From the NCBI RefSeq assembly GCF_004340785.1, contig NZ_SLXS01000002.1, positions 744,001 through 808,000 of the forward strand: a stretch of DNA of 64,000 bases, in the 5' to 3' direction. This DNA comes from Tumebacillus sp. BK434 (lineage in GTDB: Bacteria; Bacillota; Bacilli; Tumebacillales; Tumebacillaceae). Of this stretch, positions 9,273 through 12,953 are shown in pieces. The translations under genes were made by a program, and so were the position numbers. The first letter of the stretch is position 1, and each line of letters opens with the position of its first letter. The notes under the pieces are model-generated. The model was not told the origin of the DNA. It worked only from the letters and a program-made list of their open reading frames with translations, and did no database searches.

Positions 9273-9361
9273 GCCTGTCTCACTCCCGTTTTCAGAGTAC
9301 ATGTTCCATCATAACATAACGGAGAGACCCTAGGAATGAAAGACGGTTCAAAAAATAGGTC

Positions 9362-9389
9362 TTGTAAAATTATAGAATTCAGATAATAT
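9362..9389 (+). promoter_or_regulatory. Promoter of the first RiPP precursor
   Basis: -35 TTGTAA (9362-9367), 16-base spacer, -10 TAATAT (9384-9389) within GATAATATAAAG. The same arrangement with the same spacing recurs before the second precursor (10960-10987). Confidence 0.7.
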
Positions 9390-9436
9390 AAAGGTGAGGT
9401 AGTTGAATTATTCGAAAATTAAGGAGGTTACTATTA

Positions 9437-9592
9437 ATGGCGAAGAAGGATTTGTTTGATCTGGATCTGACGGTAGACAGCATCGTAGCACCGGAGGGCA
9501 CCAACACCACCGCGTACCCGTGGCCGGCATCTGTCAACTGCTCCTGGGCTCCGGCGAAAGACGAAGTAGGTCCGGAAGCACAAGTTTGCTAA
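9437..9592 (+). CDS. Lantibiotic-like precursor peptide 1, 51 aa
   Basis: ATG 9437 follows AAGGAGG at good spacing. The leader reads MAKKDLFDLDLTVDSI, containing the F-x-L-D box typical of class I lantibiotic leaders (nisin FNLDL, epidermin FNLDV), which LanB and LanC recognise. The C-terminal half contains ASVNCSWAPAKDEVGPEAQVC. Ser32 and Cys35 are in an S-x-x-C arrangement, Ser36 follows the Cys, and the last residue is Cys51. It shares the leader and the C-terminal APAKDE...PE-QVC pattern with the second precursor at 11034. A terminator-like hairpin separates it from lanC, giving the usual precursor-over-enzyme expression ratio. Modification, ring pattern and activity are inference; no leader cleavage site is obvious. 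Confidence 0.8.
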   Translation: MAKKDLFDLDLTVDSIVAPEGTNTTAYPWPASVNCSWAPAKDEVGPEAQVC

Positions 9593-9598
9593 CCGATG

Positions 9599-9637
9599 AG
9601 GCACCATAGGCTGCGGCCGCTGGTGCCTTTCTGTTTC
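9599..9637 (+). terminator. Attenuator between precursor 1 and the LanC gene
   Basis: AGGCACCA / TGGTGCCT stem (9599-9606 with 9621-9628) is followed by TTCTGTTT. The weak U-tract suggests partial read-through into the LanC gene, which has its own AAGGAGG at 9639-9645. Confidence 0.75.
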
Positions 9638-9650
9638 CTAAGGAGGCTGG

Positions 9651-10904
9651 ATGATGCGGGAGAAGATACTGAACATCGTGCGCGACATCGGACGTCGCGC
9701 CTCTGACCTGCAGCGGTTCGAAGCGATCCGGTCGCGGCCGTTCTGGATCGGCTATGACTTCGCCAACGGCTGGGCGGGCATCTGTCCGCTGCTCGGCGAG
9801 CTGGATCGCTTGGAACCGGAGGCAGGATGGGATGAGTTGGGGCATGAGCTGCTGCAGGCGATGCAAAAAGAGATGGCAGAGCGCCAACTGCCATCGCTGT
9901 CGCTGTGGCTAGGCGCGGCCGGGGTGGCGATGGCCGTGAGGAGCTTGTCGCGCGGCGGAACGCGGTATGTGCAGTTTACGGATCAGCTGCATGGCTTGTT
10001 GCTGCGCTCGCTGGATGCACAACTTCAGGAGCAGCGCGGGCGCCTTGGGCACAGCGTGCAGGCGGCCGATTTTGAACTGGTGCTCGGGATGAGCGGCGTC
10101 GGCCGCTATCTGCTCTTGTCGGCGGAGCGGCCGGAGATGAAAGCGGCGCTACTGGGCGTGCTGGACTATCTGGTCGCACTGACGAAGCCGGTCGAGGTCG
10201 AGGGAGTCGAAGTGCCGGGCTGGTACATTCGCTTTGATCAATTGGCGACGCCGGCAGAACGGCATCTGTCGCCGCAAGGGCACTTGAATCTCGGCCTGTC
10301 GCACGGCATCCCCGGCGTGCTCGGCTTGCTGGCGCTGGCGCTGGAGGCGGGGATCGAAGTGCCCGGCCAGCGCGAGGCGATCGACCGCATCGCCGACTGG
10401 CTGATCGCATGGCGGCAGACCGATGAGACGGGCAGCTTTTGGCCGACGCATGTCACATGGGAAGATCTCCACGCCGGACGCGTGCTGAAACCGCATTACC
10501 GCGAAGGCTGGTGCTACGGCGCTCCCGGCGTGGCGCGCACGCTGTGGCTGGCCGGTCGGGCGGTGGGGAGAAGCGCGTGGCAGGAACTGGCGGTGGAGTC
10601 GTATCGCGAGACGTTCCGCCGTCCGGAAGCGCTGTGGGATGCGCCCAAGCCGAATTTTTGCCACGGGCGGGCCGGGCTGCTGCATTTGACCGCCGCGATG
10701 GCTGCCGACAGCGGCGCCGGGGATCTGGCGGCACAGGCCGACCGGTTGCGGGAGTGGGTGCTGGACAAGTACGCTCCGGACTCTGTGTTTGGCTACGGCG
10801 AGGAAGCAGGACTCTTGAACGGCGCGGCCGGCATTGCGCTGGTGCTGCTCGGCACGCTCGGGGAAACGAGCACCGATTGGGACACTGCGTTTTTGATTCG
10901 CTAG
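9651..10904 (+). CDS. LanC-like lanthionine cyclase, 417 aa
   Basis: The product is full length for the family. All signature residues are visible: a His in LSHGIPG (His218), the zinc ligand Cys in GWCYG (Cys288), and the adjacent Cys-His ligands in CHGRAG (Cys337, His338). A C-terminal LLNGAAGIAL motif is also present. NisC has equivalent residues at nearly the same spacing. These enzymes add Cys thiols to dehydroalanine/dehydrobutyrine in precursor peptides to form thioether rings. The gene lies between two precursors whose leaders carry an F-x-L-D box, so those are the likely substrates. No LanB/LanM dehydratase, LanT exporter, LanP protease or immunity gene is present in the window. Dehydration must be supplied in trans, or the locus is reduced. 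Confidence 0.9.
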   Translation: MMREKILNIVRDIGRRASDLQRFEAIRSRPFWIGYDFANGWAGICPLLGELDRLEPEAGWDELGHELLQAMQKEMAERQLPSLSLWLGAAGVAMAVRSLSRGGTRYVQFTDQLHGLLLRSLDAQLQEQRGRLGHSVQAADFELVLGMSGVGRYLLLSAERPEMKAALLGVLDYLVALTKPVEVEGVEVPGWYIRFDQLATPAERHLSPQGHLNLGLSHGIPGVLGLLALALEAGIEVPGQREAIDRIADWLIAWRQTDETGSFWPTHVTWEDLHAGRVLKPHYREGWCYGAPGVARTLWLAGRAVGRSAWQELAVESYRETFRRPEALWDAPKPNFCHGRAGLLHLTAAMAADSGAGDLAAQADRLREWVLDKYAPDSVFGYGEEAGLLNGAAGIALVLLGTLGETSTDWDTAFLIR

Positions 10905-10959
10905 GTAATTATAAATGCAAAATCGGTATAGGTAACAATGCCTATATGATGATTGGGAC

Positions 10960-10987
10960 TTGTTTAATATCAGAAAAGTGATACTAT
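10960..10987 (+). promoter_or_regulatory. Promoter of the second RiPP precursor
   Basis: -35 TTGTTT (10960-10965), 16-base spacer, -10 TACTAT (10982-10987) within GATACTATAAAG. It matches the precursor-1 promoter position by position, and the untranslated leaders that follow are also similar. Confidence 0.8.
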
Positions 10988-11033
10988 AAAGACAAGAAGT
11001 TAAATTACTAGAAAGTAAACGGAGGGACTATCA

Positions 11034-11186
11034 ATGAAAAAAGATCTGTTCGAACTCGACCTGACTGTAACCAGCATCGGCGGCGCAATTGAACCGGACA
11101 CCATCGGCACCATCGGCGCGACCATCAAGTGTTCCCTGGCTCCGGCTAAAGACGAAGGTATCGCTCCGGAAATCCAAGTTTGCTAG
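11034..11186 (+). CDS. Lantibiotic-like precursor peptide 2, 50 aa
   Basis: ATG 11034 follows ACGGAGGG. The leader MKKDLFELDLTVTSI is almost the same as in precursor 1 and contains the F-x-L-D box. A GG pair follows at residues 16-17. The C-terminal half contains ATIKCSLAPAKDEGIAPEIQVC: Thr30 and Cys33 in T-x-x-C, Ser34 right after Cys33, and terminal Cys50. Compared with precursor 1 the middle is highly divergent, but both Cys, the S/T-x-x-C-S element and the APAKDE/QVC tail are kept. That is the pattern expected of a two-ring thioether peptide. It has its own promoter and a strong terminator, separate from lanC. Two-peptide synergy is possible but unproven. Confidence 0.8.
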   Translation: MKKDLFELDLTVTSIGGAIEPDTIGTIGATIKCSLAPAKDEGIAPEIQVC

Positions 11187-11207
11187 TTTTTTAAGTTCAG
11201 CTTAACG

Positions 11208-11243
11208 AAAAGCGGCCTTTTCCAAAAAGGGTCGCTTTTTTTC
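11208..11243 (+). terminator. Terminator after precursor 2
   Basis: A long A/T- and GC-mixed stem (AAAAGCGGCCTTTT paired with AAAAGGGTCGCTTTT, one G-U) is followed by a seven-base T run. Confidence 0.85.
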
Positions 11244-11303
11244 TTGTATCAGGAATGATAGAATTTATAGCGTTGATTCCTGATAGAGAACGGGAGATAG
11301 TGA

Positions 11304-12953
11304 ATGACGACATTGACGATCGATCAAATAGAACAAGTACAGGCACAAGCGCAGCAGGAAGAGATGCCGCGCGCTTTGGCGGTCCTCCGCGAGCGGATGG
11401 CGGCGACAGGCGATGCGAAAAACGCGGCGAAAATGGCCGAGCTGTCGGAGAAATGGGAGCAGGGCGCGTTTGCGATCGCCTTCTGCGGGCACTTTTCCGC
11501 CGGGAAATCGAGCATGATCAATAAACTGCTCGGCGCGGACATCTTGCCGTCCTCGCCGATTCCGACCTCGGCGAACATCGTCGAGATCAAAGGCGGGGCG
11601 GAAAAGAAAGCGCTCGCCTACCTCACCGATGGCGACGCGATCGAATTCGACCTCGACACAGAGCTGGAGCAGATCAAGAACTACGCGGCCGACGGCAACA
11701 AAGTGGTGAAGATCGAGATCACCCACCCGAGCGAACTGCTCGGCGAGCACGTCTCGGTGATGGACACGCCGGGGATCGACTCGACCGACGATGCGCATAA
11801 AGTATCTACCGAGTCGGCGCTGCATCTGGCCGATGTGATTTTTTATGTCATGGACTACAACCACGTCCAGTCCGAACTGAACTTTTCGTTCACCAAGACG
11901 CTGAAAGACCGCGGCAAGCCGGTCTATCTCGTCGTCAACCAGATCGACAAGCACATGGACTTCGAGCTTGATTTTGATGAGTACCGGGACAGCGTCATCG
12001 AAGGCTTTGCCACCTGGGGCATCGAGCCGGACGGGCTGTTCTTCACCTCGCTGATGGAAGAAGACCATGACGAGAACATGTTCGATCAGCTGCAGGACAA
12101 GCTCCGCGAGCTGTTTGCGGATAAAGGCGACCTGCTCACGAACAGCGTGGTCGCATCCGGCCTTTACCTGATCGAAGAACACGCCAAAGTGCAGGCTGCC
12201 AATCACGCCGAACGCAAGGGTGAACTGCGCGAGTTCTTGGAGAGCTTCGGCGACTATGAGCAGATCATCGCTGAGGCGTCGGTGCTGGAATTGGAGTACG
12301 AAGCATGGCGCACCGCGCCGGCCAACCTCGAAGACGACATGAAAAAGGCGATCGGCACCTTGCTCGACAACGCCAAGATCACGCCGTTCCAGACCACCGA
12401 GAAAGCGGGCGCGTACATCGCCTCCCGCCGTCCGGGCTTCAAAGTCGGCTTCCTCTTCGGCACGGCCAAGAAGACGCAGGACGAGATCGAGCAACGTCTG
12501 CAGGCGCTGTACGCCGATCTCAAAGAGCAGGTGCAGACGAACATCGACTGGCACATTCGCGGGATCTTGATCAAGGAAGTCGAGCAGTACAACCTGCACG
12601 ACGAAGCGTACAACAATGCGGTGACCAACGAGTTTCAGGTTGCATTCCAACCGGAGCTGCTCGCGAACGCAGTCAAAGAAGGCGGCTTGTCCTCCGAAGA
12701 ATACATGTACCAGTACGCGAAAGACATCGCGGCGGAGATCAAGACGCTGTACCGCCTCGAAGCGCAGCGCTTCATCGAGATGGGCGTCGCGCTCGCCAAC
12801 TCCCGCTTGGAAGCGGACGGCGCGGTGCATCGCGACGTGATCGCCAAAGGGCAGCAGATCTTGGCGGCGCAAAAAGAAATCGACGAGCTGGAACAGGCGG
12901 AGCAAGGCGACATGCAGGCCTTGATCGGCATTTTGTCAGGGAAGGAAGCGTAA
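11304..12953 (+). CDS. Dynamin-like GTPase, first of an adjacent pair (549 aa)
   Basis: GTPase motifs are clear: P-loop GHFSAGKSS (about residues 62-70), switch II DTPGID (about 153-158) and NQID as the guanine-specificity motif (about 212-215). The long C-terminal half is helical, as in bacterial dynamin-like proteins that bind, tether or fuse membranes. In Bacillus, DynA (YpbR) is one chain with two dynamin modules in tandem. Here a second dynamin-like gene starts four bases after this stop codon, so the pair resembles a split DynA or a DynA/DynB operon. DynA helps repair phage- or antibiotic-damaged membranes. There is no signal peptide or clear membrane helix. The start ATG is preceded by GGGAGA. 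Confidence 0.85.
   Translation: MTTLTIDQIEQVQAQAQQEEMPRALAVLRERMAATGDAKNAAKMAELSEKWEQGAFAIAFCGHFSAGKSSMINKLLGADILPSSPIPTSANIVEIKGGAEKKALAYLTDGDAIEFDLDTELEQIKNYAADGNKVVKIEITHPSELLGEHVSVMDTPGIDSTDDAHKVSTESALHLADVIFYVMDYNHVQSELNFSFTKTLKDRGKPVYLVVNQIDKHMDFELDFDEYRDSVIEGFATWGIEPDGLFFTSLMEEDHDENMFDQLQDKLRELFADKGDLLTNSVVASGLYLIEEHAKVQAANHAERKGELREFLESFGDYEQIIAEASVLELEYEAWRTAPANLEDDMKKAIGTLLDNAKITPFQTTEKAGAYIASRRPGFKVGFLFGTAKKTQDEIEQRLQALYADLKEQVQTNIDWHIRGILIKEVEQYNLHDEAYNNAVTNEFQVAFQPELLANAVKEGGLSSEEYMYQYAKDIAAEIKTLYRLEAQRFIEMGVALANSRLEADGAVHRDVIAKGQQILAAQKEIDELEQAEQGDMQALIGILSGKEA

What the first reader, a model, noticed from the sequence alone, without database searches (positions are those of the whole stretch)
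9362..11243. LanC cyclase with two lantibiotic-like precursors but no dehydratase
A complete LanC (His218, Cys288, Cys337, His338) sits between two 50/51-residue peptides with class I F-x-L-D leaders. Both keep the same core: S/T-x-x-C-S, then APAKDE, then a terminal QVC. No LanB, LanM, LanT, LanP or immunity gene is seen in 9 kb upstream or 53 kb downstream. Either a remote dehydratase serves it or the pathway is unusual. The implied rings (S/T-x-x-C, and a Ser-to-C-terminal-Cys ring of about 15 residues) differ from the common nisin-type patterns I know.
Basis: partly seen in the sequence, partly recalled or inferred. Interest (0 to 1): 0.85.

Follow-up and report, generated by a model that had tools for sequence, protein, structure and literature searches.

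The report
Lantibiotic cyclase unlinked from its dehydratase
A soil-type Tumebacillus genome carries a lantibiotic ring-forming enzyme with two peptide genes at one place and its most likely partner enzyme, a dehydratase with its own peptide gene, about 160 kb away; one related species keeps the same split and another lacks both halves, which may explain part of the 'orphan' cyclases that neighbourhood-based mining cannot classify.

Summary
In detail: an intact class I-type LanC (9651-10904) lies between two homologous FxLD-leader precursors (9437-9592, 11034-11186), with no LanB in the window. It is not a pathway without a dehydratase. The same contig carries a full-length LanB 163 kb upstream (C2:590786-593923) with its own elgicin-like precursor and no LanC; the two loci complement each other. 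T. avium keeps both (LanC 79%, LanB 80% identical), same order and orientation, 179 kb apart; dN/dS is 0.26 and 0.19. A third species of the genus lacks both: at the LanC site a frame-broken leader is fused to the last ~21 codons of LanC, and LanB is absent, although it keeps the complete second LanB-LanT-LanC cluster. Precursors with the D-[LMF]-F-[DE]-L-D leader of these loci make up 7 of 24 pattern-found FxLD short ORFs here, 4 of 13 in T. avium, 0 of 16 in the third species. Best reading: one class I lanthipeptide system whose dehydratase and cyclase genes are unlinked and serve dispersed precursors in trans. Confounder: a class V-like kinase/HopA1-LanC locus has the same distribution, but has its own cyclase and candidate precursor. 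No biochemistry was done.

The parts
9363..9390 (+). promoter-like element of precursor A (TTGTAA-16-TAATAT); precursor B has TTGTTT-16-TACTAT at 10960-10987
   Evidence: read by eye from the sequence; the consensus scan reported no promoter-like site in 9280-11310, so this is weak
9437..9592 (+). precursor A (lanA1), 51 aa, leader KKDLFDLDLTV, core with SVNCSWAPAKDE and terminal QVC
   Evidence: 64% identical to the T. avium peptide; weak hits only to curated models: NF038155 FDLD class I lanthipeptide E=0.088 and Pfam Gallidermin E=0.062, both below cut-off
9651..10904 (+). lanC, class I-type lanthionine cyclase, 417 aa, with H218, C288, C337, H338
11034..11186 (+). precursor B (lanA2), 50 aa, leader KKDLFELDLTV, core with TIKCSLAPAKDE and terminal QVC; no counterpart beside lanC in T. 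avium
   Evidence: no hit to Pfam or NCBIfam models
11207..11240 (+). terminator-like hairpin after precursor B; the matching sequence is kept in the third species

Best explanation
The locus is half of a class I lanthipeptide pathway whose genes are split between two distant places. The LanB at C2:590786-593923, 163 kb away on the same strand, glutamylates Ser/Thr of the precursors at both loci and eliminates the glutamate; it would recognise them by the D-[LMF]-F-[DE]-L-D leader. The LanC in the window then adds the Cys thiols to form (methyl)lanthionine rings: predicted ring 1 between the S/T and C of [ST]xxC, ring 2 probably between the Ser after that Cys and the C-terminal Cys. LanC would also serve the elgicin-like precursor beside LanB, and perhaps further scattered precursors with the same leader. 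Export and leader removal would be by proteins encoded elsewhere. Shown: gene content, conservation of both loci and of their arrangement in a second species, purifying selection, absence of both in a third species with a lanC remnant. Inferred: the partnership itself, recognition by leader type, ring pattern, export and activity.
For: Complementarity: the LanB locus has a precursor matching the elgicin/penisin family (NF033457, E=3.2e-8, 33.5 bits, under its cut-off of 40) and no LanC; the window locus has LanC and precursors and no LanB. Among 14 genomes of the order, 6 have some match to each enzyme at E<=1e-20, but outside the own genome only T. avium has a close one: LanC 79% (others 40-45%) and LanB 80% (others 38-48%). 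Same order and orientation, 178.6 kb against 162.9 kb start to start. dN/dS: LanC 0.26 and LanB 0.19, like the enzymes of the complete cluster (0.24, 0.22). G012: colinear lanC site with a leader remnant joined to a stretch like LanC residues 396-416 (score 57, against 53 for the paralogous LanC and 33 for the next in about 337 kb of other G012 sequence); no LanB or recognisable remnant at the other site. Leader type: D-type in 7 of 24, 4 of 13 and 0 of 16 pattern-found short ORFs of the three genomes. The LanB aligns end to end with a solved LanB-type protein (9g04, E=9.5e-152) and also matches NisB.
Against: Three genomes of the genus and one joint absence are a single event; whether G012's lineage ever had the LanB is not shown. 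A class V-like kinase/HopA1-LanC locus shows the same presence and absence, so the distribution alone does not single out LanB. The LanB of the complete cluster could also act in trans. No operator shared by the two loci was seen by eye, and the histidine kinase after LanB has homologues in all 6 relatives searched, with or without this LanB, so co-regulation is unsupported. Trees place both orphan enzymes next to G320, but with support 84/87 (LanC) and only 50 (LanB), and the LanB rows have deviant composition. The distance comparison over 15 clusters gives r=0.90 for this LanB, 0.88 for the C3 LanB and 0.74 for the C4 LanB, with rank correlation 0.80 for all three, so it barely discriminates. 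No LanT or protease was recognised at either locus. No expression or mass data.
Confidence: 0.72

Rival explanations
1. The LanB of the complete class I cluster on contig C4 (LanB, LanT, LanC, at least 6 precursors) dehydrates the window precursors in trans; the orphan LanC is an auxiliary cyclase of that system.
For: A full LanB and a LanT are there, its precursors share the F[DE]LD core of the leader, and class I enzymes can tolerate leader variation (general knowledge).
Against: G012 keeps a C4-type cluster (LanB 69%, LanC 60% identical) but has only a broken lanC remnant and no D-type precursor among 16 short ORFs. The C4 LanB fits the orphan LanC's distances least well of the three LanBs tested, r=0.74, though rank correlation does not differ. 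C4 precursors have N or M where these have D.
Confidence: 0.12
2. The kinase and HopA1-LanC proteins about 35 kb away (C2:714.3-718.3k, class V-like) dehydrate the window precursors, and the orphan LanC closes the rings.
For: Nearest recognised dehydrating machinery on the contig, and the same presence/absence as the orphan LanC: HopA1 in 2 of 14 genomes, this one and T. avium.
Against: It has its own cyclase domain in the same 775-aa protein and a 170-aa candidate precursor with an unrelated leader next to it. The window peptides carry the FxLD leader known for LanB substrates (recalled).
Confidence: 0.06
3. The window locus is a decaying leftover of a cluster and makes nothing.
For: No transporter or dehydratase recognised next to it; in G012 the same locus is in fact a remnant.
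Against: LanC is intact in two species at 79% identity with dN/dS 0.26, and the precursor keeps its core. A second precursor is kept here.
Confidence: 0.06
4. LanC acts without dehydration (another reaction, or on other peptides), so the small ORFs are not lanthipeptide precursors.
For: No dehydratase beside it.
Against: The conserved Cys, Cys, His and His of LanC are present; the peptides have Ser/Thr and Cys in fixed spacing and an FxLD leader.
Confidence: 0.04

Closest known systems
Class I lanthipeptides with clustered lanA-lanB-lanT-lanC (nisin; elgicin/penisin family)
   Same: LanB and LanC homologues, FxLD leader, Ser/Thr and Cys in the core; the LanB-side precursor resembles the elgicin/penisin model, below its cut-off
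   Different: lanB and lanC are 163 kb apart, each with its own precursor gene; no lanT or lanP recognised at either place
Prochlorosins/synechococsins (class II, one LanM, precursors scattered; passages seen in PMC10783134 and PMC11251773)
   Same: Precursor genes scattered over the genome and presumably modified in trans
   Different: Two separate class I enzymes, unlinked from each other; C-C-H ligands rather than C-C-C; two leader types beside two LanB systems in one genome
Unclustered lanthipeptide proteases (paenilan; PMC8960859, passages seen)
   Same: A needed maturation enzyme is encoded far from the cluster (about 551 kb there)
   Different: Here the separated genes would be the two core ring-forming enzymes
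Unclassified LanC-like proteins of Walker et al. 2020 (PMC7268733, section 5 read): 3052 unclassified by neighbours within seven genes, 1392 of them left after removing likely non-lanthipeptide proteins and contig ends
   Same: By the same rule this LanC would have no LanB or LanM within seven genes
   Different: Here a candidate partner is identified by comparative genomics

Membership tests
LanC cyclases (class I) | LANC_like domain as a stand-alone protein | tested here: met
   PF05147 E=2e-52, residues 33-415 of 417
LanC cyclases (class I) | zinc ligands C, C, H and the catalytic His (roles recalled) | tested here: met
   C288, C337, H338, H218 present and kept in T. avium; the same motifs align in 8byk
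Class I lanthipeptide precursor | F[DNE]LD-type leader motif | tested here: met
   FDLD and FELD
Class I lanthipeptide precursor | match to a curated precursor model over its cut-off | tested here: not met
   A: NF038155 13.6 bits against 20, Gallidermin 14.1 against 21; B: none
Class I lanthipeptide precursor | core with Ser/Thr and Cys that can form rings | tested here: met
   [ST]xxCS and a terminal Cys in 3 of 3 peptides
Class I lanthipeptide gene cluster | LanB encoded next to LanC | tested here: not met
   no PF04738/PF14028 match in the window; the only one on this contig is 163 kb away
Class I lanthipeptide pathway | a full-length LanB (both domains) in the genome | tested here: met
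   C2:590786-593923, both domains; further ones on C4 and C3
Class I lanthipeptide pathway | Ser/Thr dehydration and thioether rings on the peptides | not testable with these tools
   needs mass spectrometry
Class II/III/IV (LanM, LanKC, LanL) | LanC domain fused to a dehydratase or kinase domain | tested here: not met
   417 aa, LanC domain only; LanM, LanL and LanKC models match only partially and far below cut-off

The most novel reading that the evidence does not exclude
Tumebacillus runs two parallel, leader-addressed class I lanthipeptide systems in one cell. One is a clustered LanB-LanT-LanC that reads leaders without the D (mostly ME[NK]...F[DE]LDVQV), whose precursors are partly scattered over the genome. 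The other is an unlinked LanB and LanC pair that reads D-[LMF]-F-[DE]-L-D leaders at four or more scattered loci. This would be a class I counterpart of the prochlorosin system in which even the two enzymes are dispersed, and one species has lost the dispersed set while keeping the clustered one.
Probability: 0.4. Interest if true: 0.75.

Novelty: new variant of a known kind. Interest (0 to 1): 0.58.

Why it matters
Mining tools classify LanC proteins by what lies within a few genes. A conserved, selected arrangement with lanB and lanC 160-180 kb apart shows that such 'orphan' cyclases can be functional halves of class I pathways, and suggests how to pair them: same leader type, same phyletic pattern, joint absence. 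It also offers a natural pair of LanB/LanC systems in one cell for testing what in the leader addresses a precursor to its enzymes.

Tried and rejected
Considered and rejected: a LanB hidden in the window; assembly artefact (LanB and LanC are on one contig, and the arrangement recurs in the single-contig T. avium genome); the C3 LanB next to a radical SAM maturase as the partner (it scores E=1e-210 with our LanB query in the own genome, but T. avium, which has the LanC, shows only the orphan and the cluster LanB); ABC transporters in the window as LanT.

Led nowhere: LanC against plasmids gave 84 records, all under 60% identity; the LanB-side precursor has no plasmid match; the first scan of genome contigs found no relative, the second only T. 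avium, and such scans may leave out near relatives of the window's genome; comparison of upstream regions by eye gave no convincing operator shared by the two loci; 18 of 398 genomes drawn from the class have a LanC match at E<=1e-60, none near the T. avium one (best other 9.0e-117 against 5.7e-279). Of the 14 regions around these LanCs fetched, 13 show a LanB ORF beside LanC (in two ORFs in G065, shortened in G112) and G372 shows a fragment only. T. avium stretches L178 and L179 were fetched and not analysed.

Rows dropped before the leader counts. This genome, 4 of 28 hits: C1:256115 (44-aa ORF, no Shine-Dalgarno, motif mid-ORF), C4:392516 (no start), C5:120946 and C7:127783 (long ORFs). T. 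avium, 1 of 14: 4969584 (30-aa ORF, no Shine-Dalgarno). G012, 9 of 25: the remnant at 959971; 297613 (81 to 162 aa, no Shine-Dalgarno); 584807, 1714686, 1716731, 3036772, 3093775 and 3431738 (long ORFs or no start) and 3666201 (no start). Two of the dropped G012 hits, 3093775 and 3666201, do read D-L-F-D-L-D, in a 270- to 515-aa ORF and in a frame without a start. The pattern misses some real peptides (MEMMFDLD at L014:17285, MENHFDLD in L044). One of the 7 D-type ORFs here (C6:135672) has no Cys.

Not tested: whether the split LanB of C1 occurs in T. avium; PF04738 or PF05147 profile searches of G012 (only protein queries); LanP genes anywhere.

Papers: search listings; passages of PMC7268733, PMC11251773, PMC8960859, PMC12328550, PMC10783134; outline with abstract (36) and section 5 (67) of PMC7268733. 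I saw no report of unlinked class I lanB and lanC in the listings; these cover only open-licence papers, and one search returned none.

Full report
What is there. The window holds a 417-aa LanC-type cyclase (9651-10904) between two small genes of 51 and 50 codons whose products share a KKDLF[DE]LDLTV leader and a core with [ST]xxCS, APAKDE and a terminal QVC. The cyclase matches LANC_like with E=2e-52 and aligns with a solved LanC-like protein and with NisC. The two peptides are related beyond chance: score 114 against at most 37 in 2000 shuffles. Neither reaches the cut-off of a curated precursor model.

The genome. The window is C2:744001-808000 of a 32-contig genome, 97.85% complete, in the same genus as T. 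avium. Three LanC-domain proteins were found: this one, one in a complete LanB-LanT-LanC cluster on C4, and one fused to a HopA1 domain next to an LxmK-like kinase about 35 kb upstream. LanB domains are on C4 (complete cluster), at C2:590.8k, at C3:190k beside a radical SAM maturase, and on C1 in a split form. So dehydratases exist, but not in the window.

The complementary locus. The LanB at C2:590786-593923 is 1045 aa, has both dehydratase domains and aligns with a solved LanB-type protein over residues 9-1041. Just upstream lies a 54-aa precursor, MANDLFDLDFQV..., that matches the elgicin/penisin lantibiotic family at E=3.2e-8, below the model's cut-off. A histidine kinase and an ABC transporter follow; in T. 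avium a response regulator and two ABC-2 permeases are also seen. None of the three LanC-domain proteins lies there. One locus lacks exactly what the other has.

Conservation. In 14 genomes of the order, 6 have some match to each enzyme at E<=1e-20, but outside the own genome only one has a close one, the same for both: LanC 79% (others 40-45%), LanB 80% (others 38-48%). Its LanB carries an in-frame low-complexity insert between the domains. T. avium has one precursor beside LanC and the elgicin-like one beside LanB. Order and orientation are the same; the distance is 178.6 kb against 162.9 kb. By a simple Nei-Gojobori count dN/dS between the species is 0.26 for LanC and 0.19 for LanB, like the enzymes of the complete cluster (0.24, 0.22); it is 0.34 for precursor A and 0.14 for the LanB-side precursor, on 50 and 54 codons, and 0.11 to 0.20 for four neighbouring genes.

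Absence in a third species. G012 (unnamed, one contig, listed as 100% complete) is the only other genome of the genus held. It keeps the complete cluster (LanB 69%, LanC 60% identical to those of C4) but not these genes: each protein query finds only its cluster enzyme. Its lanC site is colinear with ours: between the same neighbours, a leader whose reading frame is broken at the start is joined to a stretch like the last 21 codons of LanC, about 1.35 kb being absent. That fragment scores 57; in about 337 kb of other G012 sequence held (674,000 residues in six frames, not the whole genome) the best ungapped match is 53, the paralogous LanC, and then 33. At the other site the kinase, regulator and transporter are kept, and LanB and its precursor are absent without a recognisable remnant. 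So lanC was present in the ancestor and lost; for lanB, loss and absence from the start cannot be told apart. In G010 of the neighbouring genus the lanC site is simply empty, 67 bases between the neighbours.

Scattered precursors. A search for the back-translated leader motif gave 28 hits here, 14 in T. avium and 25 in G012; the reversed-pattern control gave 7, 5 and 3. Of these, 24, 13 and 16 lie in short ORFs that read as FxLD peptides; the dropped rows are listed in Tried and rejected. The residue before [LMF]F is D in 7 of 24, 4 of 13 and 0 of 16. The D-type ORFs are those of the two loci, two solitary ones that T. avium shares (C2:363k and C2:346k), and two on C6 not seen in T. avium, one of them without Cys. 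For both solitary peptides neighbouring genes were located in G012 (for 363k on both sides but with rearrangement, for 346k on one side), and a loose leader scan of the 260 kb read there found no such peptide. At the 346k place G012 has a stretch resembling, by eye, the ribosome-binding site and start of that gene, with no coding remnant above chance. This fits one LanB that reads D-type leaders at several places. It rests on three genomes and one event.

Results against a simple reading. The HopA1 domain is also found only here and in T. avium (2 of 14 genomes), so presence and absence alone cannot choose between LanB and that system. I prefer LanB because the window peptides carry LanB-type leaders and because the HopA1 locus has its own cyclase and its own candidate precursor of 170 aa. 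The kinase after LanB has homologues in all 6 relatives searched, so it is not a dedicated regulator. The trees put both orphan enzymes next to G320 with support 84/87 and 50. The distance comparison gives r=0.90 for this LanB, 0.88 for C3 and 0.74 for C4, and the same rank correlation, 0.80, for all three. These are compatible with the pairing but do not prove it.

Literature. Walker et al. 2020 (PMC7268733) sorted LanC proteins by neighbours within seven genes and left 3052 unclassified, 1392 of them after removing likely non-lanthipeptide proteins and contig ends (section 5 read); they also mention a Tumebacillus class I cluster with 10 precursors (passage). Dispersed precursors are known for class II prochlorosins (passages) and unclustered proteases for several lanthipeptides (passages). 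In the searches named in Tried and rejected I saw no description of unlinked class I lanB and lanC.

Verdict. A new variant of a known kind: class I lanthipeptide biosynthesis with unlinked dehydratase and cyclase genes, conserved in two species. The pairing is well supported by gene content and conservation, but not proven.

Noticed in passing
L015:6322-10339 (G000:C2:714322-718339); T. avium counterpart L176: Class V-like lanthipeptide locus with an LxmK-like kinase (below the model's cut-off), one 775-aa HopA1-LanC fusion protein and a 170-aa candidate precursor rich in Cys, Pro and Thr at its end.
   Followed up: partly
L083:6482-8003 (G000:C4:474.5-476.0k); L092; L093: Eight FxLD peptides in tandem with no obvious modification-enzyme ORF in the 14 kb listed; similar arrays in T. 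avium and G012.
   Followed up: partly
L012:7906-12513 (G000:C3:189.4-194.0k): Full LanB beside a radical SAM/SPASM maturase, with no LanC; no counterpart of this LanB seen in T. avium.
   Followed up: no
L013 (G000:C1:342.6-352.4k): LanB N-terminal and C-terminal domains in separate frames and a further elimination-domain protein, as in thiopeptide-like loci.
   Followed up: no
L042:8102-11500: T. avium orphan LanB (1132 aa against 1045) has an in-frame ASDV/PSAV repeat expansion in the linker between its two domains.
   Followed up: no
L137:9700-9880 (G012): Tandem repeats of 8 to 9 bp at the place where LanB lies in the other species.
   Followed up: no
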